From positions 61,391,146 to 61,455,145 of the forward strand of contig CM048852.1 of the NCBI GenBank assembly GCA_026545225.1: a stretch of DNA of 64,000 bases, given 5' to 3'. Shown here one piece after another: positions 30,591 through 60,214 of the stretch (its first letter is position 1; each line of letters starts with the position of its first letter). This stretch comes from Cornus controversa. Its lineage: Eukaryota; Streptophyta; Magnoliopsida; Cornales; Cornaceae. Under the pieces are notes generated by a model. That model ran no database searches. It was not told the DNA's origin and saw only the letters and a program-made list of their open reading frames with translations. A program made the translations under genes and the position numbers.

Positions 30591-30629
<39 letters not shown>

Positions 30630-31136: not shown

Positions 31137-31178
31137 TTAGTATTTTCTAAATGAAGATGGGATGGAGAAGGAATCAAT

Positions 31179-35544: not shown

Positions 35545-37158
35545 ATGGACAGACTCATAAGCTTAGAGCCATCAAACCTTGTCCCGATCAGGATCGAACA
35601 AGGAGACAAGTGTTACGGTGAGCTCACATTGCGCAACGTCATGTACACCATGCCCGTCGCCTTTCGGATCCAACCTATGAACAAGTCGCGATACACGGTC
35701 CGGCCTCAAACGGGGATCATATCGCCCCTCAAGACTCTAACCCTAGAAATCACTTATCACCTCCCTCCCAATGCAACCCTACCCGACTCTTACCCTCACT
35801 CCGAAGACTCCTTCCTTCTCCACAGCGTCGTGGTCCCCGGTGCAGTGGTGAAGGACCCTTCATCGACCCTTGACTCGGTCCCTAGTGATTGGTTCACCAC
35901 AAAGAAGAAGCAAGTGTTCATAGATAGTGGTATTAAGATCATGTTTGTTGGCTCACCCGTGTTGGCTCAGCTCGTCGCCAATGGTTATATGGATGAAATT
36001 AGGGAAGTGCTGGAGAAGAGCGAGCCGGCTTGGAAGGCAGCGGACTCGGTTGACAAGGATGGACACACATTACTTCACTTGGCGATCGCACAAGCTCGGC
36101 CTGATCTTGTACAATTACTTCTCGAGTTTGAGCCTGATGTGGAAGCTCAGAGCCGGTCAGGCTCAAGCCCTCTCGAGGTGGCATCTGCCTCGGGAGAAGC
36201 GTTAATCGTTGAACTGTTGCTGGCTCACCGAGCGATCACAGAGCGCTCAGAGTCCTCCACTTGGGGTCCCCTCCATCTCGCAGCCGGAGCAGGTCACATG
36301 GAGGTTCTTAGGCTGCTTCTACTCAAAGGGGCTAACGTCAACGCGCTCACAAGAGATGGAAACACGGCCTTACACCTTGCTGTGGAAGAGCGAAGAAGGG
36401 ACTGTGCTCGGCTGTTGTTGGCTAGTGGTGCAAGGGCTGACATTCACAACACCGGAGATGGTGACACGCCGCTGCATATCGCTGCAGGCCTAGGTGATGA
36501 CAACATGGTGAAGCTGTTGTTGCAAAAGGGAGCCAACAAAGAAATCAGAAACCGGCATGGGAAAGTGGCATACGATGTGGCAGCCGAGTATGGGCACGCT
36601 AGGCTTTTCGATGCGCTTAGGCTCGGGGACAGCTTGTGTGTGGCGGCACGAAAGGGTGAGGTGAGGACAATTCACAGGCTTCTTGAGAATGGAGCAGCAA
36701 TCAACGGTCGTGATCAACATGGATGGACAGTGTTGCACCGGGGCTCATTCAAGGGCAGGATAGACGCTGTCCGAACTCTTATTGAGAAGGGTGTGGACCT
36801 AGATGCTAGAGATGAAGATGGTTACACTGCACTCCACTGTGCTGTGGAGTCAGGACATGTTGATGTAATTGAATTGTTGGTAAAGAAAGGAGCCGATATA
36901 GAAGCTCGGACCAACAAGGGTATGACTGCGATGCAGATAGCCGAGTCACTGCACTACTCGGGGATCACTAGGATACTTAGTCATGGAGGTGCTACCAAAG
37001 AAGGAGTGTCGCAGGCTGTGGTGCCGGCTACACTTCCATTCGGGAATGGATTCGTGGGTCGGGAGATAGAGACAGGGAAGCTTAAGAAGAAGGCTAATCA
37101 TCGACCAAGATCACTTCGGACTAGTATCGATCGTTCCATGCCACTAGCAGTGCTCTAG
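35545..37158 (+). CDS. VPY: VAPYRIN-type protein: MSP domain plus ankyrin repeats
   Basis: An intronless 537-residue protein. Residues 1 to about 125 form an MSP (VAP-like) domain, opening [20 protein letters not shown] and including the PVAFRIQP and [10 protein letters not shown] strands. Residues about 136-487 can be divided into eleven ankyrin repeats, several with clear TALHLAV, TPLHIAA or PLHLAAG helices. A basic tail of about 50 residues follows. This order, the near-identical N-terminus and the length (Medicago and Petunia proteins are close to 540) mark it as VAPYRIN. From family knowledge, VAPYRIN is a cytosolic/puncta-associated protein needed for arbuscule formation and for infection-thread growth in legumes, and it binds exocyst and vesicle components. 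The frame is intact and markedly GC-richer than its surroundings. The start AGAGATGGAC is the first AUG of the conserved N-terminus. A VAPYRIN-like paralogue is the alternative, but it is less likely given how well the N-terminus is conserved. Confidence 0.95.
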
Positions 37159-38845: not shown

Positions 38846-38978
38846 TATTATGGTATCAGAGCCTAAGGAACCGCAGCTTCCTTAGTGAGATTGAGATTGA
38901 AAAAGAGTGAAACACAAGTGAGAGTGAGATTGTAAGTGTGAAACACGAGTGAGAGTGTCAAGAAAATATTCTGAAAGA

Positions 38979-39680
38979 GTTCTTGCTGTGGCAACAGATA
39001 GTAGCTTTGTTCAACCTGCCATACCTCGGTTTGATGATTTTTATGACCATTGGTCGATGTTGATGGAGAACTTTTTGAGATTGAAGGAATATTGGAGCTT
39101 GATTGAAACTGGAATTCCCACAGTTGCAGATGGAGCTCAACCTACAACAACAGAACGCAAAGTCATTGAAGAAGCAAAACTCAAGGATCTAAAAGTTAAG
39201 AATTATCTGTTTCAAGCCATTGACAAAATCATCATTGAAACCATCCTCAACAAGGAGACATCCAAGAGCATTTGGGAGTTAATGAAGTAGAAGTATCAAG
39301 GATCTACAAAGGTGAAACGAGCTCAGTTGCAAGCACTTCGCAGAGAATTTGAGATACTGCAGATGAAGGGAGGAGAAACTGTAGATCAATACTTTGCTGG
39401 AACATTAACCATTGCCAATAAGATGAAAGCTCAGGGTGAAAATATGGAGCAAATTGTGATTATCGAGAAGATTTTGAGATCAATGACTTCAAAATTCAAC
39501 TATATAGTCTACTCTATCGAAGAATCTCACAACCTCACCACGATGAGCATTGATGAGCTTCAGAGTAGTTTGCTTGTTCATGAGCAAAGGATGCAAACTC
39601 CTTCAGTAGAAGAGCAGGTTCTTAAGGTGACACATGAAGACAGAAGTGGAGCAAGGGGCAGAGGAAGAGGAGGCTTTTGA
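38979..39680 (+). pseudogene. Copia gag fragment
   Basis: Reads as the UBN2/gag-polypeptide of Copia elements: ATDSSFVQPAIPRFDDFYDH, then WSMLMENFLRLKEYW, then, after a TAG stop at 39288, the QYFAGTLTIANKMKAQGE and ILRSMTSKFNY segments. It finishes in an Arg/Gly-rich run broken by a TGA at 39678. Relatives usually begin with Met directly before ATDS. Here that codon reads GTG, so the normal start appears lost. The earlier ATG at 38949 is in frame but adds residues foreign to the family. Confidence 0.85.
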
Positions 39681-40518
39681 GGTAGAAGAAGAGGAAGAGG
39701 TAGACAGCCATTCAACAAAGCTTTGGTGGAATGCTACAATTGTCACAAATTAGGACATTTTCAATATGAATGTCCTGAATGGGAACGAGGTGCCAATTAT
39801 GCAGAATTAGATGAAAGTGAAGAAATTCTCTTGATGGCACATGTTGACTCCAATGATGACAAGAGAAAGGAGGTTTGGTTTCTCGACTCGGGATGCAGTA
39901 ATCACATGAGTGGAAACAAGGAATGGTTTACTGATATTGATGAACAATTTTGTCAATTAGTAAAGCTTGGCAATGACACAAAAATGGCAGTAACTGGTAG
40001 AGGCAATGTCAAATTTCATGTCAATGGAAATACACAAGTCATCACAGATGTGTATTATGTGCCAAAATTAAAAAATAATCTCCTGAGCATCAGACAATTG
40101 CAAGAAAAAGGAGCTACAATATTGATTAAAGATGGGGTGTGTGGAGTTTATTATCCAAGGAAATGGTTGATCATGCAAACTACAATGTCCACCAACAGAA
40201 TGTTTGTCATTCTAGAGACCATGATGTTTACAATCTCAACCTGCTTTCAAACTGTTTCTGAAGATAACACACATCTGTGGCATTGTCGCTATGGGCATCT
40301 CAGTTTCAAGGGATTGAAGACCTTGCAACATAAAGAGATGGTGAAGGAGTTACCTACAATGAAGATGCAGAGTAAGCTATGCAAAGATTGCATAATAGGG
40401 AAGCAACACAAGAAATCTATACCAAAGAAAAACTTAATTGTGGTGAGCTACACACAAGCTGCAACTGGTGCATTCAGATCTCTGTGGACCTATCACACCA
40501 GCTTCAAGTAATGAAAGA
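39681..40518 (+). pseudogene. Copia zinc knuckle, protease and integrase N-terminus
   Basis: Contains a CCHC knuckle (CYNCHKLGHFQYEC, C-x2-C-x4-H-x4-C, near 39732-39773), the aspartic protease core LDSGCSNHMSG (Asp codon at 39885), and the integrase zinc-binding part LWHCRYGHLSF...LCKDCIIGKQH. Past 40435 the frame shifts by one base, and the LVHSDLCGPITPASSNE segment can be read up to about 40518. The sequence then changes abruptly to the nested block. Confidence 0.9.
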
Positions 40519-42242
40519 TGTCACACCTCCAAATTTAAATACTTGGAACTCTAGTCCAGCACTTGAATTTGGTGTGCGACTTGAAATACAAAACGTCCTT
40601 CTTACCATACATTAATCAATAAACGTACATATTACAATCAAAATGTGATCATCTAGATCATCCATTACAAAATTTTCATTTGGAGACCTCATCCCTCATC
40701 ATGAGAGCCAACTATGTACAACAAAAAATAAATACATGCTAAGAAATTTACATGTAAATGGCCTCTATCGTCCTGTACCGCGCTTCCATTTACTCGGTAC
40801 CTGAAAATAAAATGGGGTGAGCTCAACAAGCTCAGCAAGAATTGCAAAACACTATCATTGCTCAACAAATTGACCTTACCTTAAATTTCTACATATAAGG
40901 ACTCGTACAACAATCTTTGTTGATTAGGTTCACAAAATTTTTTCTTATGATAATTAAACTCTAATTAATTATCATATCCACAATTTCTTTCACACACAAA
41001 TTTTTCTTATGATAATTAAACTCTAGTTAATTATCATATCCACAATTTCTTTCACACACAGGAACTGTATTCTTAACAATTTTTTATTAAGCTAATCGTC
41101 TAGATTAACTTAACATAACCTCACATGAGCCCCGGGCTCCCCTCAAATAAATGGCATGCTTAGCCAACAAGTGGTGCGCACCACATAGTCCCGGACTAAG
41201 GAAGCTCGCACATGTGATTGGGTTTGTACATATACTCACTTAGATGGTCCCGGATCATGTCCACACAATAAGGGCACGCTTCGCCCAATGACCATAACAA
41301 ATGGGTTGTACACACCCCATAGGTAGGTCCCTGACCATACCTTAGAAAATTCTTTAGATATTTATTTCATTTTCATACATTCAAACTTTTAAGATTTACC
41401 AAATGTTTCAACATTTAATAAATCAAACCGTTCTTTTAATGTGATCCATAATCACATTAATTAATCACTTTAGGATTTCACTACTTAAATCTTTTCTAAA
41501 CTTAATTATTTTAGCATAATTAACTTTATTATGCCAAAATGTACCACTCAAGAGTTTTTCATAATTTTTAGAGCTTAAAGGATATTTTTTCCTAATTCAC
41601 TCTAAATTAAAACTAAAAGGAAACAAACATTCTTTACCAACATAAAATCTTTTATAATTTATTAAATAATTTTCACATTTAATAAATTAAATGAGCGAGT
41701 TGTGCATGTTCATAAAGCTTAAACGTCACTAATCGAATCTTTAATCCTTAGGACCAACTATTCTAACTTAACAAGCTCTATTACGTTAAAACAAATGATT
41801 CCATAAATTTACACAATTTGGAGCATTCGAGAATTTTTTCCTAGAACCAACTATTCTAGCATAATTAGTTCTAAATGCATAGATATAGAATTTCAGAAAA
41901 AAAAAACGTAATTTATGGAGCGTCAAAAATATTTTTCCTCCAAGTTCTAATTTCAACCCCAAAAGAAATTCTTTACATTTCTTTTAAATGACATTGGGTC
42001 TATTCTTAATTTCAGCCCAGTCCAAAGTCATGCAACCATTTATTTCTTTTAGATGATACTGGGCCTATTTTTAATTTTGGCCCAGTTCAAATCATTTAAC
42101 TCAAGACTGAACCCATTCACTTTTACTAATTTCAACTCTTGGGCCAATCCATTCTCTAAACCAAAATCATAACTATTCCATTTCAGTCAACTCAAACAAC
42201 CCAACAACTTCCATCAACCACTTTAGAATAACAACCCACACA

Positions 42243-42287
<45 letters not shown>

Positions 42288-43125
42288 ACCCAACTGATAT
42301 AATCAAAGACCCACCATTTTCGACACCCAGCAGGATCTCCTCAAGGACCCATCTTCAAAAGTCTAATGCCATGCATATCAATCCACCACAAGTAAACCAA
42401 CTTCTAGATAAATTAATCAATTCATCCATATATATATATATATCTATATACTACCAAAAAAAAAATAACCATACAAAACAAAATGCAAAAATATGTATAT
42501 CTCAGTATATATATCAACATCAAAATGCTCTAACATTGCTAATTTACATGCATTGATAAAAAAAAATTAAAAAAAAAATAACCACCAGGATTACACATAT
42601 ACAACACTGTACAATATATATAGCTATATACATAATCACATGCATCAATATATTTACACCCACAATGAAGATTCAAAGAATACCTAAGTCTCATGCAAGT
42701 ATCAATACCTTAAAACAAATTAATACCCATCACTAGCTATATATAACAATCCATATATATAAACAACCCAAAGACTAATCAAGCAACTCTTAATCCAAAA
42801 TTTTCTTGTTAAAGTCTCACCCTTAAAACAGTTTCAAATCAAAATTTTTACTAATTTAAAACATGGTTATCTAGATATATAAAATATATATAGAAGCATA
42901 AGGCAAGATTCAACTTGCCTCAATGAAGATTTTCTTCTCTTCTTCTTCTTCTTCTTCTTCTTCTTCTCTGTTTCTCTCTATAGCCGAGACTATACTTTAG
43001 TCTCTTTTTCTTGCACACTCTACCTCCTTACATTCAATTGTCAAAACAATGCTAGCTTTGGTACACATGTCACACATGCACCAGCTTGTCTGCCACTATC
43101 CAATTCAAAGCTTGCCTCACAAAGC
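40519..43125. mobile_element. LTR-like block nested in the Copia element
   Basis: The non-Copia sequence starts TGTCACACCTCC, like the left end of long Gypsy-type LTRs. It contains a GGGGTGAGCTCAACAAGCTC phrase, CCCGGGCTCCC/AGTCCCGGACTA blocks, a 62-bp tandem repeat (40935-41058), (TA)n at 42245-42284 and (CTT)n at 42940-42967. No protein is encoded. The size fits a solo long LTR, but a TG...CA right end and a target duplication are not clear. The Copia sequence between integrase and RNase H is missing across it, so insertion was accompanied by deletion. Classification is tentative. Confidence 0.5.
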
Positions 43126-43572
43126 TTTTATTCTCAGTTCTTGTACAGTTTTATGGTCCTCTAAGAAGTAACCAGTGGTCACATTGTTTACAACTGAAGC
43201 TGAATTTATAGTTGCTGCCTCTTGTGCTTGCCAAGGAGTTTGGATGCGAAGAGTTCTTGAAAAACTTGGTCATGCTCAAAATGAAAGCACTATTATTCAC
43301 TGTGACAACAGTTCCACCATTAAGCTAGCTATCCAAAAATTCAGTATTTCATGGCCGGAGCAAGCATATAGATATCCGTTTTCATTTCCTTCGTGACCTT
43401 ACAAAAGATGGAACAGTAGAGCTTGTGTTTTGTAGCACTCAAAAATAGATAGCAGACACCATGGCAAAACCATTAAAGCTTGAAGTTTTTGAAACACTGC
43501 GTGAAGGACTTGGGATGTGCAGAGTACCAGAATAAACTAATTGCAATTGTGCAATCAGTTTAAGGGAGGATA
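43126..43572 (+). pseudogene. Copia RNase H end
   Basis: TVLWSSKK, a TAA stop, then PVVTLFTTEAEFIVAASCAC is the conserved Copia RNase H region. After a frameshift near 43345 the frame continues as HIDIRFHFLRDLTKDGTVEL and, past another stop, the IADTMAKPLKLEVFE tail, ending at a TAA near 43533. A polypurine tract (GGGAGGA) follows. Confidence 0.9.
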
Positions 43573-43900: not shown

Positions 43901-44459
43901 TTTGGAACTACTTACAGAAGATTTTATTGCATCAACTACTTGGGCAGCCTCAAACTAAGGTCTTATACATGTTCTCTCAGTAGTAAGAATCCAAGTAAAA
44001 TTAATACATGGAATTAACAAAGAACTCATATATACTCTAGTTGTGAAATGACCAAGAGGCCTAAAAGCTTATAGTTGAGCTTGGCTTTACCTTTTTCATA
44101 CTTGAGTGCTTAAAAGATTGTTTTAGAGTAATGTCTTAGTAGTGACATTAGAGTTTCTCATTGTATGTATACAACGTCCAGATATAAATATTTCCAGCCT
44201 TATCAATTATGTTTAGCAACAAAACAAATTGCTTAGTCTGCATACAGTTATATATATATATGAGAATAATTAATATTGTTTCCTTGTCTCGATCTGCAAA
44301 TATGAATTCCACACGTGAAAAAACACTATATCATGAGGATACTGTTGGTGTTCTTATCCTTTAAAAGTTTGACTTTTATCACTCGCCACTTGTTTTCTCA
44401 CGAAGCCATAATACCATTTAGGTAACCTAAAAAAGGCACATTAATTACACTACAAGATT
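43901..44459. other. Intergenic sequence, no gene recognised
   Basis: No domain-bearing ORF, RNA gene or element end seen. Confidence 0.55.
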
Positions 44460-44965
44460 TTTACATGTCGCCTAGAAAACATAAACACTTCACCGAGAAT
44501 GTCGTATTCGTATTGGACATTCGAACACCATGTTGAACACTTCGTAAAAGTGTCTTGACATTTTACTTTTTATGACACTTCTTGGACACTTTTCAAAGAC
44601 GCATGGACACTTCATAACAGTAATGTATATTCAAATATTTTGAATGAAAATTATATGAAACTAAGTTATGATTAAAATCTAAGCTAAATATATGTAAAAG
44701 AAAAAATAAGTCTGGTTCTTTAATTTATTTTAATCTATTTGTCTATTTTTGTTTATAAGTTTGTTTGGTTCTTAATTGCTTGATGATGAATTGGAGTATT
44801 TCTATAATGTAGTATTTTTTATTAAATAATTAATATATATTATTATATTATATTATTATTTTATAGTCGTATCCTCACCGTGTCTGTATCTTTTTTTTAA
44901 AAATTTCTCTTATCGCTGTGTCAGTGTTGTGTCGTACCCATATCCCGTATTCGTGTTTGTGCTTC
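44460..44965. repeat. GTGTC-word dispersed repeat, copy A
   Basis: Carries GACACTTCTTGGACACTTTT-type iterated words, then CTTAATTGCTTGATGATGAATTGGAGTAT and ends CCGTGTCTGTATC...GCTGTGTCAGTGTTGTGTC. The same order occurs inverted at about 48930-49140 and forward at about 52390-52560. Confidence 0.65.
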
Positions 44966-45129
44966 CTTGCATATCATCTATAGTATAGTAATAAAAAAAA
45001 AACCTAATAAACCTAGGGTAAAAAGCGTTAAAAAAAAACATACATGATGTGACAAATTATATTTGTATAATTAGAAACACGTGATGTGACACATTACATT
45101 ACTAATATGTCTATTTCTTATCTCCTATT

Positions 45130-45560
45130 GACAGGGTGTGGGAAGTGCTATATATATATATATATATATGATTTTATCTTCAAATAACATGAGACATTTT
45201 AGAATAAAATTGAAAAATAAAATCGTCCGAGATTCAAAACGAACAATATCATACAATGTGGTGAAATGAATCGTTATAAATGATATTAGAGCTGGACGCA
45301 GTCGGAGATGGGAGGACGTTAAACAGACCCAAACAGACTCCTCAACGAGTTTTTAGAGAGAGTGATTGTGACATTTCAGATCGCTTGAGTGTGAAAAGTG
45401 AAAGTGTTATATATGTATGATTCCATCTCCAAATAGCATGACACCTTTTAGAATAAAATTCAATAACAAAATTATACGAACTACGATCGAAAGTGAATAA
45501 TATCATAATTTGTGGTATAGCGAATTTCTTAATGTGAAGGCAAGAAGGCATCCATCAGCT
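45130..45560. repeat. Degenerate tandem duplication, ~260-bp step
   Basis: Two stretches share TTTAGAATAAAATT, CAAATA(A/G)CATGA(G/C)AC and AATATCATA in the same order (about 45170-45260 and 45420-45510). Non-coding. Confidence 0.6.
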
Positions 45561-45989
45561 GGTCCGAATGACCATGGTCCACTTGAAGGAGCATAAATTT
45601 TCTTCTCCCGACAAGAGGATGTTGGTTTGCTAACCCAAACTCAGTTCAGACGTACCTTCATGGCAAACCCACCCCACCAACCCATTCGTATTTCGTACTG
45701 ATCTAGATATCCAAGTCCAACCACCCGAATCTAAGAATTGTGCAACTATATCATCATTTTCCAATTGACCAACCCATGCCAGAGCCTTCACCTACTTTGG
45801 GACATGATCAACTTATCCAATCTGAATCACACGACTCTGAAATGCAATAGAGAAACTTTTGGATATTCACCACCTCAGCCCAACTCCAAATTAATTAATC
45901 CTATTTCTCTTTACCCCAACACGTATAATAAATAACCTACCCCCTCACCAACTCCTCCAACCAATCAATGATCATGATCACCACATGAT

Positions 45990-46027
<38 letters not shown>

Positions 46028-47400
46028 CCAAAATTAAGATTTTTAAACCTAATCCTATTTACACATATAAAGCCAACCAAAAAGGTGTTCCTTCGACCTT
46101 AAAATCATTTTGGCTGATATGTAGCCACGAATTAAACATGCATGGAGCTAGTATCTCCTGCTCTCAAATTAAACATGATCCTCCTCTCAAAGAGACTTAA
46201 CTTTTTACTTGCTTTGAAAGTAGAAAAAATACAACATGGCAATGCCACTCCACTTTCATTTACACACTTGTAAAACTTAAGAGATGACATAATTACTTTT
46301 TTAAAGTAGAGTGTAAGTAATTTTTTAGGTTATTATGAAGTGTATTGTTTTTTATTATTTAAATAAATAAATAAATAAGTAAGTGTATTGCGTAAGTGAA
46401 GATGTGGAGGGGTGTTTATATATATATAAGGTCTATATGTGTGTGAATTACCGAAACAAAAAGGTGTGTGTGTGTGTGTATATATATGGGGTTCCCATCT
46501 CACCTACTCACCCAACCAACCAAATTGCCTGACTAGTAGTAGTCTTTTGGACATTAAAGAAAAGGGTGTTTTAGGAAGTTCAATAAATAGATACTCCCCT
46601 GTTAAAAATGTAATCTTGCCAACCATATTGCCAAGTAGTGGGCTGCTTAGTCTTTCCCCACCAACTCAAGCCACCAACTTTGATGGTAACTTCTTCACAG
46701 TTTTTCACTCGTAGTTACCACAAAGCAATGGAATTATGTCCAAGCGCTTGTGAAGCGCGTGACAATAATCTCAAGCGAATGTAGTCAACTATTTAATCCA
46801 TGTACATTTTAAGGACTTTCGTTTCATCAATCGCATGTTAATTAAAAGTCTCCGCTGTACCTTTTTAGTTGTCTTACATTAAGTGTTTCATTTAATGAGA
46901 TAATCCATCAATCACATGTATGTTTGTTTGTTTTTTTATTTTTTATTTATTTTGGAAGTTAAAGCAATACTCACACACACGATCTCCACCGAAGCTTGAA
47001 CCCTAGACTTTTCATACGAAAAGTTTTGACCAATTGGTCTTTGGTAATCACATGTTTCCTTACAACATCGGAAACATATTATCAATATTGTACGGAAGGA
47101 GAAAATATTGAATATTCTCAGTATCATATCTTTTTACATATTTCAAGTGAATTGATATTTCTTATAATTAAATAAAATGAAAAAAAATTATCTATTAGAT
47201 GTGTAAAAGATATAATTCTCCTGAGATATTCAATAATTTCTTGTGCGAAGAGATATCATTTTACAAACCTCATCATTTATGTCATATGATGTCCTACGTA
47301 AGAAATGACTTTTGGTGCATCAAAATCAAGTCATTTTTAAACATACTGTAGACATTAAAAAATTACATGATAGATCCAAAATATAATTTGGGTTTATCTT
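45561..47400. other. Intergenic sequence, no gene recognised
   Basis: Holds (TA)n followed by (GA)n at about 45990-46027, (GTGT)n near 46464, and an iterated AATAAATAAATAA stretch near 46364. ORFs at 45738 and 46439 are short, with no domain. Confidence 0.5.
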
Positions 47401-47639
47401 CAGTTTAACCCACTTTAAAATGTGACTTAATGATTCAGATAATTTGAACCCAGAACCGCACAAATAATTGGGTCATAGGCTGATCCAAATTATCTAAAAA
47501 TGTCTAGTCCCAACACAAATAAATGGGTCATGGGTTAATCCAAATTGTCTGAAAACGTTCAAACCCACTTGAAAATGGGTCAAATGGCTATATATATATA
47601 TATGTATGTATGTATATATATGTGTGTATATATAATTAT

Positions 47640-48322
47640 CATCAAAGATAATTATTATGTATATTTTGGATAATTATCACAATTCTCATAAAGGATAATT
47701 ATAGGATAATTATCAGAAGAAAAGAAAGTTACAAATCTACCCCTCCAAGAAGTCTATAAATAGAGATAGAGGGTGAAGAGAAGGGGGAGAGATTCTAACA
47801 GAATACTGAAGCTCTACCAGACTCTGCTTTCAATCAACACTTGAAACTCTGAAGACATAAGTTCATCCATCCTTCAAAATTTTGAAGAAAACAACAAGCA
47901 CATTCAAAATCGGATTCCACAAATTAAAAGAATTATCAACAAGACTATTCGAGATCAAGCTTCTTCAGCCCTCGATCAGAAATTCTCACCGATTTTCTTC
48001 AACAACAAACACTTGAAGAGAACTCTTAACAACCCGATTTAAGATCAAGCTCCAGTATCCCTTGAATCCGAATCACCAAGGAGATCGAATTAGAATAATT
48101 TATCTTTCTTTTATAAAGATCCACAGAGAATTATACCAATTTTTCTAAAAATTAATAAAAGTAATTATTTGCTACTAATTTTCGTTCCTAGATTTTCACC
48201 AAGGACATCGATTCAGAGGAATTTATCTTTCTTTTGTAAAGATCCATAGAGAATTATACCAATTTTTCTGAAATTAATAAAAATTGATTATTTGTTACTA
48301 ATTTTCGTTCCTAGATTTTAGG
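47640..48322 (+). mobile_element. LTR relic with TATA box and duplicated U5 end
   Basis: GGATAATTAT words lead to CTATAAATAG at 47754-47763, a strong TATA box. A leader-like segment rich in CAAGCTTC/CCTTGAATCC follows. The end is a unit present twice: 48073-48195 and 48196-48319 both start TCACCAAGGA, contain ATTTATCTTTCTTTT and GAATTATACCAATTTTTCT, and finish TTTTCGTTCCTAGATTTT. It resembles a solo LTR. Outer limits are approximate, and no primer-binding site or coding region follows. Confidence 0.6.
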
Positions 48323-48929
48323 ACACAATTTATGTGTACACACACAACACATTACATCGAGATAATGTGTTGTATTATCGATATAATAATATTATATGTA
48401 TGTCATTTTGATACACACTGAACACTTTACATTAAGATAATGTGTTACGTAATAATGTTGCATGTGTTACATCTTAATGTAATAAGTGTTGCATAACATT
48501 TTGATACGACCATAAAATATTGCGAATTTGAAAATGAGGTAAGTTAGATTGATAATCAATTGTAAAATTTATGTCAAATTTTTTTTTATGAATTCTCATT
48601 TAATTGGTAAAAATTTATGTGACTAACCTTATTCATATAAGATTAAGATAACAAAGATCATAATGATATGATGATAAAAACACAAGGTTAATTTTGATGC
48701 ATTGGAAAGTAATGGAATTCAACTTAAACAAGGGAGAATGCCATTTCTATATGTGTCTTTGTCCATGCAGATTGCAAGTTTGTCATGATACTTCCTTTTT
48801 ACATTAAATATTTTTTTAAAAATGTATTTTTGAGTTAAAAAAATAACACGATTAGTAAAACAATATTATGTATGTTAATTTCTAATATGACTTTTAACCT
48901 CTTACATATGGGACCAAAAATTGGTAATA
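48323..48929. other. AT-rich intergenic sequence
   Basis: Iterated ACATTA/TAATGTGTT words at 48340-48500 form a weak imperfect repeat. No gene seen. Confidence 0.5.
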
Positions 48930-49660
48930 ATCGATGAAGTATGGACACGGTAACACAATAATTTTTTTTAAAAATTCGAACACAAACATGGCAAGGATAC
49001 GGTTACGAAATAATAATATAATATATTACTATATTCTACAAGTTAACCAATATTCACAATACCATAATTCTAACAATAAAAAATGATTAAGTTATACAAA
49101 TATTTCAATTCATTATCAAGCAACTAACATATTTTCAAAAAAGGGTGTTGTCATTGGGTAAACTCACTGCTAGAACCTTACACATTACTCATTTTTCTAA
49201 TAACAAATAAATAAATTTAAATACAAAATACTAAACAAAACAACATGACTTTATGTTAAATAAAGTTCCATTGACCTTTTATTTTTATTTTTTGTTTCTA
49301 AACTTATTATTTAGAAATTTTATTTAACTGTTTTTTTATTTTTCTAAATTATTTAGAAAACACTATATTTATAAAGAAACTGACATAGATCATATTAAAA
49401 GATATATATGTCATTATAGTTCTTCTAAAAAGTCAAGTTGTCAACTTTTAGAAGATGAGAGACTGAGATGCCCCAAAAAAAAGTTCAGAAGGTCTTTTTG
49501 CTACTTTGTAAAAGTTCAAGGATTTTTTTTGCAATTTTAAAAATTACAAAATATACCATGCTATGTTCTCCTCGTGTCTTATTCATGCCCTTGTGTGTTA
49601 AAAAAATATCAGACACTTGTAAAGAGTGTTTGACACATATCCGACACCGCCATAACACCC
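48930..49660. repeat. GTGTC-word dispersed repeat, copy B (inverted)
   Basis: On the minus strand 48940-49140 reads GCTTGATAATGAATTG, then CCGTATCCTTGCCATGTTTG, then TACCGTGTCCAT, in the order of copy A. The 49560-49660 part adds CAGACACTTGTAAAGAGTGT words. Confidence 0.6.
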
Positions 49661-50923
49661 CTAGATGAAACGTCTTTGCTTTTTAGGTAATATAACCTTT
49701 TGTTAGGAATGGAATGAATTTTTATTTTAACAATCTTTCCTAGTGCACCAAAGAGAGCATAAATCACTACCAGAGCCTCACTTAATGGAGGGATGATCTC
49801 CCCCTTCCCAGTGTATTGGATTTGGAGAGGATTTCTTTTTTTTGTTTTTTTTTTCATTATTTTCACAAGTTTTAATAAAAATGTATTTTTTAGTAAATTG
49901 TAATTTTTTTTTTATTTTTATAGTATTTTTAGACATTTAATACTTTCGAAACAAAGAAAACATGATACACCAAACTAATATTTTGTTTACTACCAACTGT
50001 TGTAAAAGTTTTAATTGAAACTAGTCATCCATCTGCTCAAAATGGTTAAGCTATTTATAAAACAACTATATATTTTAACAAAATTTAAAAATATTAGTTT
50101 CTAATTCAAAATTTTTAAAATTTTCAAATATAATCAACTTGTCACTAAGATGGAAGGCGGACACACGGAGCTTCACAATTTTGCCCATACATCACCGACA
50201 GGTGCTACCCCGTGCCAACATGAAACGCTTCAAGTAACATGGTGAATATTGGTCCCCACAAGCCTCTATTGCATCAATGTTTCAATGTGGACTCAATTGA
50301 ATTGGAGTCGATTATTTCTACTGCTAATAAATTTATATGAACTTTATATACATTTTTCACAATTTTTTTTTTTTTTTTATCAATAATGTTCTTATTTTTA
50401 ATGTTGGATAGCCAATTGACACCACGGACCACTTTTCTCTTTAGTGGGTCTCTCTCCAATCTTTTCGGTAGCGATATTTGTTAGGGCATCCACTATGGGT
50501 TCTTCAAATTTGGTTCTCCAAATTTAAATTTTAGCTAGCCACTTCAGCATTTTAGCCAGCCACATCATCATGTCAGAATCTCTAAATTTTGACTCTACAA
50601 CAGGTTCTCTAGATTTGAATTTTATTCAGTCACATCATAATCTCTAAATTTTGACTCCACAATAGGTTCTCCAGATTTTCATTACCCGCACAATTAAATA
50701 ATCTTACACAATTAAATTAATCTTAAAATTTTATGTATATACATACTTATATTAAAAAATTTTATACTTTTTTAACTTGAAAAATTCATAGTTTTTTCAT
50801 TTTAAGTAAAAAAAAAATAGCCTGAGTGGTACTCAAATTAAAGCTCTTGAAATTATCTTTATAACAGAATTCGTTTCATCAAAAAATTTAATTTGTAGTA
50901 AAAGTTATTAAGATTTAAGTAAA

Positions 50924-50961
<38 letters not shown>

Positions 50962-51328
50962 CGAATTTCTAAAAAAATAAAGACAAAAAATATATATATA
51001 CATTTGGTTAGCTATGTGCTTCGCTATTTTAACTAACTCATTATGCCAACCCATTGATGCTCGCCTTACAATCAGTGGTGAAACATGTTATTATACTCGA
51101 TGACACTAATTACTAATAATTTTTGTTATTAAAATAAGTGATATCAAAATAGATAATATTTGATAATAGCGTATCACTTATTTTAATAACGTGAATTATC
51201 ACTCATAATTACAAATGTTGCTATCCAAATAAACTACGAAAAATACTATAAAGAAAGGATTTTTAGTCTACCGCCACTTCCTATAAGTTAACCACTTCAA
51301 ATGACTAGTTTTGTAACGCGCCTCGTCA
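49661..51328. other. Intergenic sequence, no gene recognised
   Basis: (TA)n at about 50925-50958. 50500-50690 has two similar phrases (CACATCATAATCTCTAAATTTTGACTC and TCATCATGTCAGAATCTCTAAATTTTGACTC type), a local ~80-bp duplication. Short ORFs are not credible. Confidence 0.55.
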
Positions 51329-51337
51329 TAATTTTAA

Positions 51338-52049
51338 GGGTAATGCTACTCAGGCATAGGGGTGACCACGGATCGGATTGAATCGGATTATGCATAATCC
51401 TAATCCGATCCGCGGATCACGGATTGACGAAAATCTAATCCGATCCGATCTGTGGCAATCCACCAATCCGATCCGATCCGATCCGTGATTGAACGGATCG
51501 GATCGACGGATTGGCCTAGTACTCTTATTTGAAAATTTTTTTTTCTACTTCAAAAATTCAAAAAAAAAAATTGTCCAACAAACACAACACTTTTTAAATG
51601 AACACAATTGTTAAATAAATAAATATAATATATATTGAGTTTTTAGGTTTACCCATGTAAGTATGTAGCATATTATATTATTATACATATAATTACTAAT
51701 TATATATATAAATATATTGCCACGGATCGGATTGCGGATCGGATCGGATTTCTGACCCTCCAATCCGCAATCCGATCCGTAGCTAACGGATTTTAATTTT
51801 TTAATCCGCCACCAATCCATTAGCTAACGGATCGGATCAGATTCGTCCGGATCGGATCGGATTGGATTGGATCGGATTCGCGGATTTTTTGTGCACCCCT
51901 ACTCAAGCAGAATACTTAGGCAGAATTCGTAAGCAGAAACATTTATATCTATTGGATGCATGTGGTAGGCCCCACCACACACACTCACCACATGCATCCA
52001 ATGAATGTAAATGTTTCTGCCTACGAATTCTGCCTGAGTAGCATTACCC
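51338..52049. mobile_element. MULE-type MITE carrying a nested hAT MITE
   Basis: Outer ends GGGTAATGCTACTCAGGCA and TGCCTGAGTAGCATTACCC are perfect 19-bp inverted repeats. The 9-mer TAATTTTAA flanks both sides (51329-51337 and 52050-52058), as for Mutator-like elements. Removing the nested element leaves about 159 bp. The AATGCTAC part of the terminus is shared with the elements at 1615, 18001 and 37569. The right half has a second internal palindrome (CACCACATGCATCCAATGAA against ATTGGATGCATGTGGT). Confidence 0.92.
51357..51901. mobile_element. hAT-type MITE with GGATCGG-iterated core
   Basis: Ends TAGGGGTGACCACGG and TTTTTTGTGCACCCCTA. The 8-mers CTCAGGCA (51349-51356) and CTCAAGCA (51902-51909) differ by one base, an 8-bp hAT-type target duplication within the outer MITE's left arm. 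Both flanks of the core are long runs of GGATCGGAT/ATCCGATCC words on both strands, while the middle (51520-51715) is ordinary AT-rich sequence. Non-coding. Confidence 0.9.
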
Positions 52050-52249
52050 TAATTTTAATCGTACTATTCCCAACCACTAAACTAAATAGTCTCTCTAGCA
52101 TGCATCATCACACTGACATACTGCGACATGAAAAACAATTGTTTTATTTTTGTAATTTTGTCTCACGTCAACGCCATAGACACCTAACAATCTCAATGCG
52201 GTACTACAAAATATTATGACAAAAAAAAGATAGAACTCTTACTCAATTT

Positions 52250-52570
52250 TTGTTATCAATTTATGTGACAATTATCGAAATTTATATAGGATGACAATCT
52301 GATCTAAATATATGTAAATGATAAAAAAATGAACAAAAAATTAAAACATTTTATTTGAATAGGTTTAGTTATTTAAATTATTTGTTTATTTTTGTTCTTA
52401 ATTACTTGATAATAAATTGAAGTATTTATGTAATATAATCTTTTTTTTTTGAATGATAAATATATATTAATATATTATATTATAGCCGTATTATTGCTGT
52501 GTTATGTTTTTTTTTTTAAAATTTTATTGTCCTGCCCGTTGTGTCATAATATTATTTATGCTTTACTTAT
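52250..52570. repeat. GTGTC-word dispersed repeat, copy C
   Basis: Shares CTTAATTACTTGATAATAAATTGAAGTAT and TATAGCCGTATTATTGCTGTGTTATG-type sequence with copy A (44460-44965), same orientation. Termini unclear. Confidence 0.6.
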
Positions 52571-52660
52571 TAATTAAAGACTTTTAAGCACCTAGTTTTT
52601 TTGTGTGTATATATATAAAGAGGAGAACGATACGAGTTTTGAAAGGTCGCGTTTGGGTAA

Positions 52661-52667
52661 ATTTATA
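52661..52667 (-). promoter_or_regulatory. Mirror-image TATA box in the left palindrome arm
   Basis: ATTTATA on the plus strand is TATAAAT on the minus strand. It sits in the left arm exactly opposite the METE TATA box and would direct transcription leftwards, away from METE. No gene is visible on that side. Whether it is active is unknown. Confidence 0.5.
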
Positions 52668-53288
52668 GAAGAAGAACGGTGGTTTGGTAGATCTGAGGAA
52701 AGGAAAAGCTAATTCTTGATGTTCTGTTGATTTAAGTGAAAACGTGCGCGAGTGTACGGTGGCTTGTATGGACATGCATACATACATATATATTGACCTT
52801 TTTTCCTCTTTCTCATAGGATATTCTATTAGTAACTCACGTATTAAAATATTGTCGCCGGAGGGAAAGAGGAAAAAAGGTCCATATACATATTAGTAACT
52901 CACGTATTAAAATATTGTCACCGGAGGGTTTGAGGAAAAAAGGTCCATATACTATGGACCTATTTTCCTCTTTCCCTCCGGTGAAGAAAAAAGGTCCATA
53001 TATATATTAGTAACTCACGTATTAAAATATTGTCACCACAGGGAAAGAGGAAAAAAAGGTTCATACAATATTCCCTCTTTCCCTCCTGTGACAATATTTT
53101 AATACGTGAGTTACTAATGGGATATCTTACGAGAAAGAGGAAAAAAGGTCAATACATATATATGTATGCATGTCCATACAAGCCACCGTACACTCGCGCG
53201 TTTGCTATTAACGTTTTCACTGAAATCAACAGAACATCAAGAATGAGCTTTTCCTTTCCTCAGATCTACCAAACCACCGTTCTTCTTC

Positions 53289-53295
53289 TATAAAT
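53289..53295 (+). promoter_or_regulatory. TATA box of the methionine synthase gene
   Basis: TATAAAT within CTTCTATAAATTTACC, with a start expected near 53318-53328. A pyrimidine-rich leader ending at a GT donor at 53390 follows. ACCAAAC at 53268-53274 fits the loose MYB/SMRE-type pattern seen in phenylpropanoid and methyl-cycle promoters, but such a 7-mer also occurs by chance. Confidence 0.65.
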
Positions 53296-53319
53296 TTACC
53301 CAAACGCGACCTTTCAAAA

Positions 53320-53389
53320 CTCGTATCGTTCTCCTCTTTCTCTAAGAGCCATTCCCAGACCTCCCCTGTTCTTCTACCTGCTCCTAAAG
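53320..53389 (+). other. METE 5'-UTR exon and start of a 1.2-kb leader intron
   Basis: CTCCTAAAG|GTACGT gives a donor at 53390. The likeliest acceptor is GGTGAACCAG at 54593, five bases before the start codon, giving an intron of about 1.2 kb. A second CACAG acceptor near 54527 is possible. Leader introns before the AUG are common in plant methionine synthase genes. The transcription start is inferred. Confidence 0.6.
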
Positions 53390-54598
53390 GTACGTTCTCT
53401 CTCACGTCTCTCCGTCACTTACACTCCACATTTTTCGCACATTTGCTTTGTATTAGAAACGTAAGTCTCACCCGATTAATTATTATCCTATTTTCCTTGT
53501 TAATCTCTCTTAGTTTTTTCGGAAATCTTGAACCCACTTTTGGAAAAGAAGAAATCGAAGAAGTTTGTATAAAATTAAATTACACTTTCTTATGCTCTGT
53601 TATTACTTTATTGTCTTTAAGTTTCATCAAAAGTTTGATATTTCCAATTAGATCTACTGGTGAGTGGTGGGTTTACTTATAGTTTCATTCTTTCATATGG
53701 GTTTCTTAATTCAATACTAATGACAGATGATGTGGTGTTTTCCTGTTATTGCTTCATTGTTTTCCTATACATATATTATACATATGTAGATATGCTATAC
53801 GTATAATTATATGTGTGAATATGTTAGATCTAGTGTTCTGGGGTGTTGGAATTTGTAGATTTGGTTTTGGATCTTTGCTTGTTGAACTACATCTGATTTG
53901 GAAGTGGCTTTTGAGAGTTATGGATTCTGTTAGATCTGTGGGCATCTTTTGTCTTCCTTTTTTAGTACACTTGGCTCTGTTTTTGCATTTTAGATCTTTA
54001 TTTCATGCTTAGATCTAATCATTACTTACTTTATTTTTTCAACTAAAGTTCTTCATTTGGTTTGTGTGTTTTTCTTTATCTCATCGTTTTATAATTAACC
54101 AAATGTTAGTTACGTGCTCTACACTGTCAATTATAGCATTAATTATTTGATTTTGTTAACTAAAGTTGTTCTACACTTTTAGTTATAGTAATAAATTTTC
54201 ATTTCAATCCGCAATGTATCACTTTTGGAATACTTTTTTAATGCTTTTGAAAAGGTAAATTTGGCTTGGTTTTCCTCAAAGTGGGAAACTAGTAACATGT
54301 TTGATCCTACAGTTTGAATGCCCAATGGCCCCGTGGTCTTTAGGACCCATGTTTTAAGCACATTCCTGAAATTAACTGAACAAAAATGAAATGAATTGAA
54401 TTATAGAAATTCTTGCAATATAAATCTTCTTCCTTTTTAAATTATGCTACATTGACTATGTCTATGCATGTGTGCTATATATGTGGATCTATTACTTACT
54501 CAAATGTGCATATATATAATACACAGATTTTTGTGTCATTAACAATTAGTTGTTGAATAAAGGCAACTGAATTTTGGTTGATCTGGTGAACCAGAACA

Positions 54599-57500
54599 AT
54601 GGCCTCTCACATTGTTGGATATCCTCGCATGGGCCCAAAGAGAGAGCTCAAGTTTTCTTTGGAGTCTTTCTGGGATGGGAAAAGCACCGCCGAGGATTTG
54701 CAAAAGGTGGCGTCTGATCTTAGGTCGTCCATCTGGAAACAGATGGCTGGTGCTGGCATCAAGTATATTCCCAGCAACACATTCTCTTACTATGATCAGG
54801 TGCTTGATACAACTGCAATGCTTGGGGCTGTTCCCCCTAGATATGGTTGGACCGGTGGTGAGATTGGATTTGACACTTACTTCTCCATGGCTAGAGGAAA
54901 TGCCTCTGTACCTGCTATGGAAATGACCAAGTGGTTTGACACCAACTAGTAAGTGATGAATCTATCCTCATAACATACTGTCACTATTTTGATACTGACA
55001 TTTGTGTACTGATGAATTCTTGTATATGTATTGATCCAGTCATTTTATTGTCCCTGAATTGGGACCTGATGTGAAGTTTTCATATGCTTCTCACAAGGCT
55101 GTAAATGAATACAAGGAGGCGAAGTCGGTATGTTCTTTGGAACAGTTATCCTTCCCTTATATTTGTCTCCCTGTTTGTATTAGTAACCAAGCATTTAGGT
55201 AACTTATGAATGTGTTTAGTCCATTCATTAAGATAAGCGGCATAAAGGTGGCGAAGTTAGTGAGTTAAGCCACTGGTGCAAGGTTTAATTTTGGGTTAGA
55301 CATCCATTTATGTCTGGGCCAAAGTTAGAAAAGATAATAGAAACTGGAATAATTTGTGTGACCTTATGAAAGATTGAAATATTTGATAGTAGCTCAAAAT
55401 TTATATGATATGTGTAATATTCAATGAAGTTTTAAATTTTGGACCTATAGATCTGCCATTGAAGCATTTTACTGTATTCTTGTCATATTGTTTATAGAAA
55501 TGTGGTTGAAGTGCTTTTATTAAGAAATGGTTTATTTGTGGATTACCATGATTACTATTGCCATATACCCAATACTTCCTATTATATTTTAGCTTCCGTG
55601 TGCGGAGTTTTAATAATAGTTAGTACAATGTGACAGTGTTCTTTTTCCTCTCTCTCTCTCTCGGTAGGGGTTATTGGTCGGGCTCTTGGGGGGTGTCTTT
55701 GGTTTCCAAATTGTATCAGATAAATTTAAGGCTTCTAAACACTATGTCATTTTCCCTTACTGATACTATTCTAGTTTATTTATGCTATACCTTCAAATCT
55801 CTTAGAAAGAATCAGATCTTGACTCTCTTCTTTCATGCAGCTCGGAGTGGATACTGTTCCAGTTCTTGTTGGCCCTGTCTCCTACTTATTGCTATCTAAA
55901 CCTGCAAAGGGTGTTGAAAAATCGTTCTCTCTTCTTACCCTTCTGGGCAAAATCCTTCCAATCTACAAGTAAGGAATTGAACTTTTCTTTTGGTACCATC
56001 AGTGAGTTTCTGCATATATTCATTCATGTGATGTCTCTATTTGCTATTATAATGAAAAATTCCAGGGAAGTTGTAGCTGAGTTAAAGGCAGCTGGTGCGT
56101 CATGGATTCAGTTTGATGAGCCTACCCTCGTGAAGGATCTTGAGTCTCACCAATTGCAAGCATTTACTAGTGCCTACTCTGAGCTAGAATCATCTCTATC
56201 TGGCCTGAATGTTCTCATTGAGACCTACTTTGCTGATATTCCTGTTGAGGCATACAAAACCCTCACTGCTCTGAAGGGTGTCACTGGGTTTGGTTTTGAT
56301 TTTATTCGTGGATCAAAGACTCTTGATTTGATCAAGGGTGGATTCCCTTCAGGCAAATATCTCTTTGCTGGAGTTGTTGATGGAAGGAACATCTGGGCAA
56401 ATGATCTTGCTGCATCCATCAGCACTCTGCAGTCTCTTGAGGGCATTGTGGGAAAAGGTATCATTGTTCACATGATTTGTTGCATGGCTTTATAATTTTA
56501 ATCCCTGCAGATAATTTAGTTCATATATAATTCCGTCTTGCAGACAAGCTTGTGGTCTCCACCTCGTGCTCGCTACTCCACACTGCTGTAGATCTAGTTA
56601 ATGAGACTAAGCTGGACAACGAACTCAAATCATGGCTTGCATTTGCTGCTCAAAAAGTTGTTGAAGTGAATGCCCTTGCAAAGGGGTTGGCTGGTCACAA
56701 AGATGACGTATGGTTTTTTTTATTCGTCCATTGCTTCAATACTTGATCAAAATGAAAGATGACAGAAATACTGATCCATGAGCTTTCTTTATTTTTGTGC
56801 TTTTGATTTATGTGGATCAGATTACTCACTTTTGTGGGTTCATTTTCAGGCATTCTTCTCTGCTAATGCTGCAGCTCAGGCTTCAAGAAAGTCCTCTCCA
56901 AGGGTGACCAACGAGGCTGTTCAAAAGGCTGTAAGTAATTGACTCTGTTTCCATTCTTTAGCCTGTCAATTGGCTATGCTGCAGAAATCATTTTGTCATC
57001 AAGTACTCACTTTGTCTTTTTGGTTTCTCAGGCTGCTGCTTTGAAGAATTCTGACCACCGTCGTGCTACAAATGTTAGCGCCAGACTGGATGCTCAGCAG
57101 AAGAAGCTTAACCTTCCAATCTTGCCAACCACCACCATTGGATCTTTCCCTCAAACAATTGAGCTCAGAAGAGTTCGCCGTGAATACAAGGCTAAAAAGT
57201 GAGTCATTCCAAACAATTTTCCTAGTGTTTTGCCATACACCGTCTGTTGCTCTACCCCAGTTCTGATAGTACTGTTCTCTCTAGGATATCTGAGGAAGAT
57301 TACATTAAGGCCATAAAGGAGGAAATCAACAAGGTTGTCAAGCTCCAGGAGGATCTTGATATTGATGTCCTGGTTCATGGAGAGCCTGAGGTAAGTTTTG
57401 ATTTATGCACCAGCTAGTGGAATAAAAGCAATAAGATATAATTCCTTGCTTCTTAAGGTTAATTTAAGACTACACATTTACATTCCATGAATTCTTTATT

Positions 57501-58610
57501 TGCAGCAGGAGCCCTTTCTTCTTACTATTGTGGTTTGTTTTCTTTTTAGAGAAATGATATGGTTGAGTACTTTGGAGAGCAGCTGTCTGGTTTTGCCTTC
57601 ACTGTCAATGGATGGGTTCAATCTTATGGATCTCGTTGTGTGAAGCCACCTATCATCTATGGTGATGTGAGCCGTCCGAAGCCAATGACTGTCTTCTGGT
57701 CTTCTATGGCTCAGAGCATGACTGCCCGCCCTATGAAGGGAATGCTTACTGGCCCTGTGACCATTCTTAACTGGTCCTTTGTCCGAAATGACCAGCCCAG
57801 GTATTTTAAAAACCTGCAAAAGAGGGGGAAAGTACAGAAAGGAAATCATTGTTATATTAGTTTATCTTTCTGATATTATTATTTTGTAACACGTTATTAT
57901 TTCTCTATTCCCAGATTCGAAACTTGCTACCAGATTGCATTGGCCATCAAGGATGAAGTGGAGGATCTTGAGAAAGCTGGCATCAATGTCATCCAAATCG
58001 ACGAGGCTGCTTTGAGAGAAGGCTTGCCTCTTAGAAAGTCGGAGCAAGCTTTCTACCTGGATTGGGCTGTCCACTCCTTCAGGATCACCAACTGCGGTGT
58101 CAAAGACACCACCCAGGTTTTTCTCTCCACCATTCACTCCCATTTTTCATATCTTGACTTGGGTTATTTGCTTTTTTATTCCCATTTTAGTTATCAATTT
58201 TCTGTCAATGTACTGATCGCTCATCTGTTGATAACTGACAGATCCACACCCACATGTGCTATTCAAACTTCAATGACATTATCCACTCAATCATTGACAT
58301 GGATGCCGATGTAATCACCATTGAGAACTCGCGTTCTGATGAGAAGCTCCTCTCAGTCTTCCGCGAGGGAGTGAAGTACGGTGCTGGAATTGGACCCGGT
58401 GTCTACGACATCCACTCCCCCAGAATTCCATCAACAGAGGAGATTGCTGACAGAATCAACAAGATGCTTGCAGTGCTCGAAACCAACATCTTGTGGGTTA
58501 ATCCTGACTGTGGGCTAAAGACTCGCAAGTACACCGAAGTGAAACCAGCCCTTCAAAACATGGTCGCTGCCGCCAAGCTCCTCCGCACCCAGCTTGCCAG
58601 TGCCAAGTGA
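54599..58610 (+). CDS. METE: Cobalamin-independent methionine synthase (11 coding exons)
   Basis: Transfers a methyl group from 5-methyltetrahydrofolate-polyglutamate to homocysteine, the last step of methionine synthesis and the step that recycles homocysteine for S-adenosylmethionine. No transit peptide is seen, so it is the cytosolic type. Coding exons: 54599-54948, 55040-55127, 55841-55968, 56066-56457, 56544-56707, 56850-56930, 57032-57198, 57285-57390, 57550-57800, 57915-58116 and 58242-58610. All are GT-AG and phase-consistent. They total 2,298 nt, or 765 residues, the usual plant length. The N-terminus [20 protein letters not shown] is canonical. Zinc ligands fall where expected: His647 and Cys649 (HTHMC), Glu671 (ITIEN), and the Cys of [10 protein letters not shown]. 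The homocysteine-binding IGSFPQT segment is in exon 7. The gene is intact. Its promoter lies in the palindrome at 52617-53339. Confidence 0.97.
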
Positions 58611-60214
58611 GCGATTTTGAGAAGAAAAGTGGAAATTCAGCTTCTTCACAGAATCGATTATTTCCAATTAAAACTGCATTAAAGGAAAATCCTCTATTGA
58701 TTATAATTACATTCCAATTAAATTGTAGTCTGCCCCATCTGCATTTTGTTTTCTTTCTCATTGTTTTGTGGATTTTTATTTTAAATATATGACGTGTTCT
58801 AGGGCTTTATTTTACCTTCAATTTGTTTGAAAGGCATCAAATTGATTAGTGTACCTCTATGGATGGAAAATTGAAGAAATGTTATCAACAGTTTGTGTAT
58901 TGATAATTTGATCCATGTGGGATGTGTGTTGTTATATCTTTGCCATCTCTTCATTGATATTAAAGCCTCCGAGTGGTGTTGGTTCACCTTTTTTGCCTTC
59001 AATTTACTCGTACCATTTGCAGATCTGCCTGTGTTTAGAATTTAGATGCACTTCTCGCGCGCGCGTGAGAGAGAGAGAGCAAATTAATTATTCATTCCAA
59101 AATTGAGAGAAAATTTGAACTCTTAATCCAGTTCACTATTTTGGTTGCATTTTATAATTTATTTAAAAATTCAATCCTCTTGTTCAAATAGTTAGAATCA
59201 GAAAAGTAGATACTTGTAATTTACTGTAAAATATATTTAGATAGTGATGGCCCATTTGATATTATTCTTTAAATTTAATAAATATGTTTGAAAGAGTTGT
59301 TGCAAAACCACACAGTAGGGACTCTTCCTTGTTATGGCCTCGACTTTGCAGAGCTTTGGCTCACGACGGTTCCTCTTCTCTAATTTAATGCATACGCTTT
59401 CCATAAAATAAAAAATAAAAAGTAAAAAACATTTAAGATTTTGTACTTTTATATTTCTTTTAGGTATGGACAATATTATCATTGTAGCTTTTGTTAACCG
59501 CAGATATGGGAAAGGTGTACTGTTTTTTTATTTTTTAATGTGCCACTGGTGCTTATTGTTCCTCTATATATATAGAAAGGAGTTAGTGCTTTATGGAATG
59601 CATTGAATTCGTATTCTAATTACAATATAATTAAATTCGTATTTATTTACAAAAAGAGCTTTTAAAACTCAATGAATTAATAATAAATGAACTATCAGAC
59701 TTAGAACCACCATTGCTTGTGTATTGCTACGGAGCCCACCCGAGAAATTGGAAGAAAAATGGAAATACTATCTGGTTTATATTGTGAGGGATAATTTGAA
59801 ATTTGATTAGGAGTGAAAAAAACTTGGTCTAAAAATGAATGGTTAAACTTATTTTTTTTGTTTTGATTGGTATATAGAACTACATATGCACACTGTCTTT
59901 ATTGAAATTCGAACCCTGAAAAGGTCAGGACGTTTTTGTCGCTGGACCAATTAGACTTTGACTGGTTAAAATAATAAAACAAGTCATAAGCAATGCTCGA
60001 TTTGTTCGACTAAAATTAATTTAAATGATCATTTAATATAATAATAAGGTGATTTGAGCCATTTTACATCATTAAGAAGTTTAGGCATATAGAAATTACT
60101 TCACCACCGACTGTCCCACCGGGAAGGCTAAAGATAATTTGACAACCTCACTGACCATATTTTTTTAAAAAGTTTCGTATTTGACAAATCTCATGGAGTT
60201 GAGAGATATTCACC

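What the first reader, a model, noticed from the sequence alone, without database searches (positions are those of the whole stretch)
52617..53339. METE promoter is one arm of a 0.72-kb palindrome, giving two outward-facing copies of the same core promoter
Seen: ~260-bp arms, mirror TATA boxes at 52661 (minus) and 53289 (plus), and a centre made of direct and inverted copies of a ~60-bp unit. The right arm leads straight into the intact METE leader. The left arm faces no visible gene. Inference: the inverted promoter copy could drive an orphan leftward RNA, alter METE dosage, or seed small-RNA/heterochromatin effects at a housekeeping gene. Palindromes of this size are also unstable, so its persistence is notable.
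Basis: partly seen in the sequence, partly recalled or inferred. Interest (0 to 1): 0.75.

Follow-up and report, generated by a model that had tools for sequence, protein, structure and literature searches.

The report
Inverted promoter duplication upstream of METE
A dogwood-like plant carries a backwards copy of the start-up switch of its methionine-synthase gene just upstream of the real one, most likely a copying accident at hairpin-forming repeats; it is real and tidy, but probably of modest importance.

Summary
The palindrome is real. Arms 52617-52874 and 53071-53339 align over 258 columns with 11 mismatches and one 11-bp gap; the outer 94 bp, with TATA box and presumed start site, are identical. 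The right arm runs into a METE gene with an unbroken 765-codon spliced reading, near a VAPYRIN-like ORF as in several other plants by locus tag, so the right arm is taken as native and the left as added. The plant is probably Cornus-like (VAPYRIN-like protein 94% to Cornus florida).

The centre holds copies of a MITE-like unit U with ~19-bp inverted ends. The source promoter is flanked by one 11-bp inverted word, in U and in the METE leader; the leader copy spans the palindrome edge (reached near the edge in 36 of 5000 shuffles). No flush target-site duplication. Best reading: an inverted duplication by template switching at U, not a transposon or assembly error.

Both promoters face outward, so they should not themselves make a hairpin RNA. 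No leftward gene was found in a partial scan. Leftward transcription, small RNAs and relatives could not be tested; the genome search did not complete.

The parts
52617..52814 (-). Left arm, inverted copy P' of the METE proximal promoter including core promoter and presumed start site; begins with AAAGAGGA (52617-52624) and ends with TCCTCTTTCTC (52804-52814)
   Evidence: 4 mismatches in 198 aligned columns to the source; first 94 bp identical
52661..52667 (-). Mirror TATA box (TATAAAT on minus strand)
   Evidence: sequence; identity of outer 94 bp
52791..52886 (+). U1: MITE-like ~95-bp unit with about 19-bp terminal inverted repeats
   Evidence: I7; nhmmer E 2.1e-30 at 52792-52886; U1 is itself in the model
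52868..52949 (+). U2: direct copy, tandem with U1 at 64-bp period
52953..52984 (-). U3: truncated inverted copy, hairpin partner of U2 (32-nt arms, 3 nt apart)
   Evidence: I8, I6
52983..53060 (+). U4: direct copy
53071..53155 (-). U5: inverted copy in the right arm; hairpin partner of U4 (48-nt arms, 17 nt apart)
   Evidence: (I4)
53131..53141 (-). Inner copy of the 11-bp word (GAGAAAGAGGA on +), in U5, flanking the source promoter
53131..53339 (+). Right arm source segment P: taken as the native METE proximal promoter, to roughly +20
   Evidence: continuity with METE
53289..53295 (+). TATA box of METE
   Evidence: sequence
53332..53342 (+). Outer copy of the 11-bp word TCCTCTTTCTC in the METE leader, spanning the palindrome edge
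53320..53389 (+). Presumed METE leader exon (start inferred about 30 bp below TATA; presumed splice donor AAAG|GTACGT)
   Evidence: start and splice inferred, no transcript seen
54599..58610 (+). METE coding region, 11 coding exons, 765 codons, the ten coding introns GT-AG
   Evidence: solved structure 1u1h matched over 1-765

Best explanation
It is a local inverted duplication of the native METE promoter. Shown by sequence: copies of a MITE-like repeat unit (U) lie upstream of the promoter, and the promoter segment is flanked by a perfect 11-bp inverted word, GAGAAAGAGGA in U5 and TCCTCTTTCTC in the METE leader; the leader copy spans the palindrome edge. Inferred: a replicating or repairing strand switched template at this word, copied the promoter backwards, and switched back inside the U repeats, leaving flank - inverted promoter - U cluster - native promoter - METE. 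Likely present function (inferred): the right copy drives METE. The left copy has every core element the right one has, so it could start a short AT-rich non-coding leftward RNA into the METE/VAPYRIN-like intergenic space; it is more likely neutral than selected.
For: The arms are a reverse-complement copy with sharp edges at 52617/53339. TCCTCTTTCTC occurs 3 times in the 64-kb window (52804 +, 53332 +, 53131 -), each at an edge of the inverted block; 52804 and 53131 correspond to each other in the duplication, so the independent coincidence is that the leader edge carries the U word. In 53205-53480 it is the only word of 9 bp or more shared with the central repeats. A shared word of 11 bp or more within 6 bp of that edge arose in 36 of 5000 dinucleotide shuffles of the leader. 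Outside the palindrome 78 of 63234 window positions begin an 11-mer shared with the centre, 3 of them with 4 or more G/C. Mismatches cluster right after the word: 4 of 198 columns up to 52814, 7 of 60 beyond (Fisher p 0.004; post hoc). No flush target-site duplication. METE reads as complete. VAPYRIN-like and METE proteins carry consecutive locus tags in Camellia fascicularis (020483/020484), Tetracentron (017930/017931) and Eucalyptus globulus (007297/007296) and nearby ones in Asimina (005714/005710); a Nyssa model joins ankyrin repeats to METE in the window's order.
Against: No relative's promoter DNA could be read, so which arm is ancestral rests on gene continuity and locus-tag adjacency. 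That adjacency is not universal in the two capped lists (120 rows each): for example Actinidia eriantha, Paulownia fortunei, Acer negundo, Ziziphus, Theobroma and Xanthoceras have the listed METE and VAPYRIN-like proteins on contigs of different length, perhaps other paralogs or assemblies. The leader is pyrimidine-rich: a word of 11 bp or more anywhere in its 92 nt arose in 69 of 2000 shuffles. At the outer junction only a run of 8 of the 11 letters is present, and it is part of the copied arm. On the left flank the only shared words of 9 bp or more are TA runs at 52608-52617. The mismatch clustering depends on the cut: p 0.008, 0.003, 0.043 and 0.004 for cuts at 52770, 52776, 52790 and 52814, and could reflect faster mutation in U: 8 of 9 differences beyond 52776 are transitions, 0 of 2 before it.
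Confidence: 0.68

Rival explanations
1. A transposable element (MULE/foldback type, long terminal inverted repeats) inserted just below the METE start and now supplies the METE promoter from its own terminus.
For: Long inverted ends, AT-rich target, and a TATA-like run (TATATATAAAG) just left of the arm edge that could be an older promoter (read by eye).
Against: No flush target-site duplication for element ends in 52600-52625 x 53330-53349; the longest direct repeat is 5 bp (AAGAG) and does not sit at matching ends of the arms. The outer edge coincides with a word shared with the internal repeats, which a transposon end would not need. No arm copy elsewhere in the window; copy number in the genome could not be tested.
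Confidence: 0.15
2. A functional paired promoter kept by selection: the left arm makes a leftward non-coding RNA, or pairs with the right arm in a loop, and tunes METE.
For: The outer 94 bp holding the core promoter are identical in both arms while the inner part differs. The U core, with a CACGT motif, is present in four full copies.
Against: A young copy or gene conversion explains the identity equally well. The leftward RNA has no long ATG frame in 51900-52640 (longest 32 codons, cut by the end), and no leftward gene was found in a partial scan. No expression data.
Confidence: 0.1
3. Assembly artefact (chimeric or adapter-less read-through producing a false palindrome).
For: Such artefacts make inverted repeats (recalled); no raw reads were available.
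Against: Arms differ by 11 substitutions and an 11-bp indel, and the centre holds non-matching repeat copies; a read-through artefact would mirror around one axis.
Confidence: 0.04

Closest known systems
Short-range template-switch mutations, four-point model (PMC7954356 passages; PMC8794818 abstract and outline)
   Same: A reverse-complement copy of a nearby segment, able to form a hairpin, explainable by two switches.
Near-gene inverted repeats / MITEs of plants with chromatin and siRNA effects (Arce 2023 and Gagliardi 2019, seen only as cited in PMC12595863, passages)
   Same: Inverted repeat within 3 kb of a gene, MITE-like unit upstream of the start.
   Different: Here most of each arm is the gene's own promoter and both arms point outward, so no own promoter reads through the repeat; siRNAs not tested.
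MULE or foldback transposons (recalled)
   Same: Long inverted termini around a repeat-rich middle.
   Different: No flush target-site duplication; one end is a gene leader.

Membership tests
Template-switch inverted duplication | Adjacent reverse-complement copy with sharp ends | tested here: met
Template-switch inverted duplication | Microhomology at the switch points | tested here: met
   Source segment flanked by a perfect 11-bp inverted word, leader copy spanning the edge; 36 of 5000 shuffles near the edge, 69 of 2000 anywhere in the 92-nt leader stretch. Moderate, not conclusive.
Template-switch inverted duplication | Unduplicated ancestral allele in a relative | not testable with these tools
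   No plant DNA collection; own-genome search not answered (10 attempts)
MULE/foldback transposon | Flush target-site duplication | tested here: not met
MULE/foldback transposon | Dispersed multicopy arms in the genome | tested here: inconclusive
   None elsewhere in the 64-kb window (E up to 1e-3); genome not searchable
MITE (unit U) | Short element with terminal inverted repeats | tested here: met
   (I7), 19: centroid hairpin of about 19 bp plus a 5-bp outer stem, shuffle z -6.18
MITE (unit U) | Target-site duplication and dispersed copies | tested here: inconclusive
   Flanks are TA-rich, so a TA duplication cannot be judged; all 8 nhmmer hits at E up to 10 lie inside the palindrome; genome not searched
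siRNA-producing near-gene inverted repeat | 24-nt siRNAs from the arms | not testable with these tools
   No small-RNA data

The most novel reading that the evidence does not exclude
The inverted copy is a live second METE promoter: it fires leftward, and the two identical cores compete or loop together, so that one template-switch event created a divergent promoter pair that sets METE dosage and opens a new non-coding transcription unit in the interval shared with a VAPYRIN-like gene.
Probability: 0.12. Interest if true: 0.5.

Novelty: new member of a known kind. Interest (0 to 1): 0.27.

Why it matters
It is a clean natural example of what looks like one small copying accident duplicating an entire core promoter in the opposite orientation. 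It gives a testable case of how new divergent transcription can start at a housekeeping gene, and of hairpin-prone repeats seeding promoter rearrangement. If the left copy is silent, it shows that an inverted promoter copy is tolerated.

Tried and rejected
Transposon insertion: looked for target-site duplications; none flush. Leftward gene: 7 of the 14 listed minus-strand ORFs (list cut at 14) were scanned with Pfam; two sub-cut-off matches (UPF0137, Gal11_ABD1), taken as chance. Structured RNA: 0 Rfam matches at gathering score in 44001-59000. Methylation decay of U: the transition excess suggested it, but the three positions that other U copies can polarise (52856, 52858, 52872; read) do not show C-to-T, so it was dropped; the remaining six could not be polarised. 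Relatives by DNA: exact scans of viral contigs for a 26-mer and of genome contigs for a 23-mer gave 0; by their descriptions these are viral and prokaryote collections, so this says little. Literature: six phrases for an inverted promoter duplication gave 0 papers; this is an exact-phrase search of open-licence PMC, not proof of absence. Other paper searches: (listings only, except the four papers opened).

Full report
What is there. The inverted repeat is real and its edges are as reported. Arms 52617-52874 and 53071-53339 align over 258 columns with 11 mismatches and one 11-bp gap, the left arm lacking the 11 bp. The outermost 94 bp are identical and contain TATAAAT at 53289-53295 and its mirror at 52661-52667 (read). 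In the whole window 20 inverted pairs of at least 45 nt within 5 kb were found; the two halves of this repeat are the only ones longer than 60 nt with at least 90% complementarity. The DNA strand folds at -308.9 kcal/mol against a mean of -69.5 for 20 shuffles.

The centre. Between and inside the arms lie copies of a unit U. Its full form (U1, 52791-52886) has ends TTGACCTTTTTTCCTCTTTC ... GAAAGAGGAAAAAAGGTCCA, a MITE-like hairpin. U1 and U2 repeat at 64 bp; U2/U3 and U4/U5 form closer hairpins (32-nt arms 3 nt apart; 48-nt arms 17 nt apart). Over 45 shared bases the four longer copies differ from each other at 2 to 5 sites. A profile search of the window found 8 hits at E up to 10, all inside the palindrome.

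The gene. METE reads as 11 coding exons, 54599-58610, 765 codons, with ten GT-AG introns, plus a presumed leader intron with donor AAAG|GTACGT at 53390 (no transcript seen). It matches solved structure 1u1h (recalled as the Arabidopsis enzyme) over residues 1-765 and a Nyssa sinensis model at 96% (best 120 of 7991 hits listed). The ankyrin/MSP ORF at 35545-37155 is VAPYRIN-like, 503 of 537 residues identical to Cornus florida, so the plant is probably a Cornus or close kin (inference).

Which arm is old. In Camellia fascicularis, Tetracentron sinense and Eucalyptus globulus the VAPYRIN-like and METE proteins carry consecutive locus tags, and in Asimina nearby ones. A Nyssa model joins ankyrin repeats to METE, in the window's order. 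An Acer model joins a dsRNA-binding part to METE, but in front of it, whereas in the window the dsRNA-binding ORF (60562) follows METE, so neighbourhood but not order is shared there. Not all plants agree: in Actinidia eriantha, Paulownia fortunei, Acer negundo, Ziziphus, Theobroma and Xanthoceras the listed copies sit on contigs of different length, perhaps other paralogs or assemblies. Locus tags usually follow gene order; this was not checked on DNA. METE thus appears to be at an old locus, and the arm continuous with it is taken as native.

How it arose. The word TCCTCTTTCTC occurs three times in 64 kb: 52804 (+), 53332 (+) and 53131 (-). The last two flank the source promoter as a perfect 11-bp inverted repeat. 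The first is the counterpart of 53131 in the copy, so it is not an independent coincidence. At the outer edge of the copy (52617) a run of 8 of the 11 letters remains. In 53205-53480 this is the only word of 9 bp or more shared with the central repeats; on the left flank the only such words are TA runs at 52608-52617. Shuffling the leader gave a shared word of 11 bp or more within 6 bp of the edge in 36 of 5000 trials, and anywhere in the 92 nt in 69 of 2000. Arm mismatches are 4 of 198 up to 52814 and 7 of 60 beyond (Fisher p 0.004); cuts at 52770, 52776 and 52790 give p 0.008, 0.003 and 0.043, all chosen after looking. This fits a promoter segment copied backwards between pre-existing U repeats, but faster mutation within U could also do it. 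The template-switch literature describes such reverse-complement products (PMC7954356, passages; PMC8794818, abstract and outline).

What it does. Shown: both arms hold the same core promoter sequence, facing outward. Inferred: METE is driven by the right one; the left one may make a leftward RNA. Of 13 ATG frames in 51900-52640 the longest is 32 codons, cut by the end of the stretch. Because both face outward, neither reads through the repeat, so the pair should not by itself make a hairpin RNA. Inverted repeats near genes are common in plants and many make siRNAs (634 of 885 in an A. thaliana accession within 3 kb of a gene, around 486 of those with 24-nt siRNAs; PMC12595863, passages), so a small-RNA test remains worthwhile.

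Limits. The own-genome search did not complete in ten attempts. No plant DNA collection, reads, RNA or methylation data were at hand. Copy number, presence in relatives and activity are therefore open.

Noticed in passing
51899-52041: Separate MITE-like hairpin (54-nt arms, 91%) about 600 bp left of the palindrome, next to a CGGAT-rich repeat stretch at about 51721-51895.
   Followed up: no
28935-32973: Imperfect inverted arms (three segments, 78-83%) about 3.5 kb apart, possibly a DNA transposon with long terminal repeats; flanks printed but not analysed.
   Followed up: no
38928-43393: Copia-type retrotransposon pieces between the VAPYRIN-like ORF and METE: 39681-40508 matches zinc knuckle, Pol_BBD and gag_pre-integrs; the ORFs on either side look related by eye only.
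   Followed up: partly
35545-37155: Uninterrupted VAPYRIN-like ORF (MSP domain plus ankyrin repeats), next to METE by locus tag in several but not all listed plants.
   Followed up: partly
22245-23892: ORF pieces resembling a hAT-type transposase (recalled resemblance, no family search run).
   Followed up: no
52929-52931: U2 has TTT where U1, U4 and U5 have AAA; a three-base change of the kind a short template switch could make in one step (the single step is inference).
   Followed up: no
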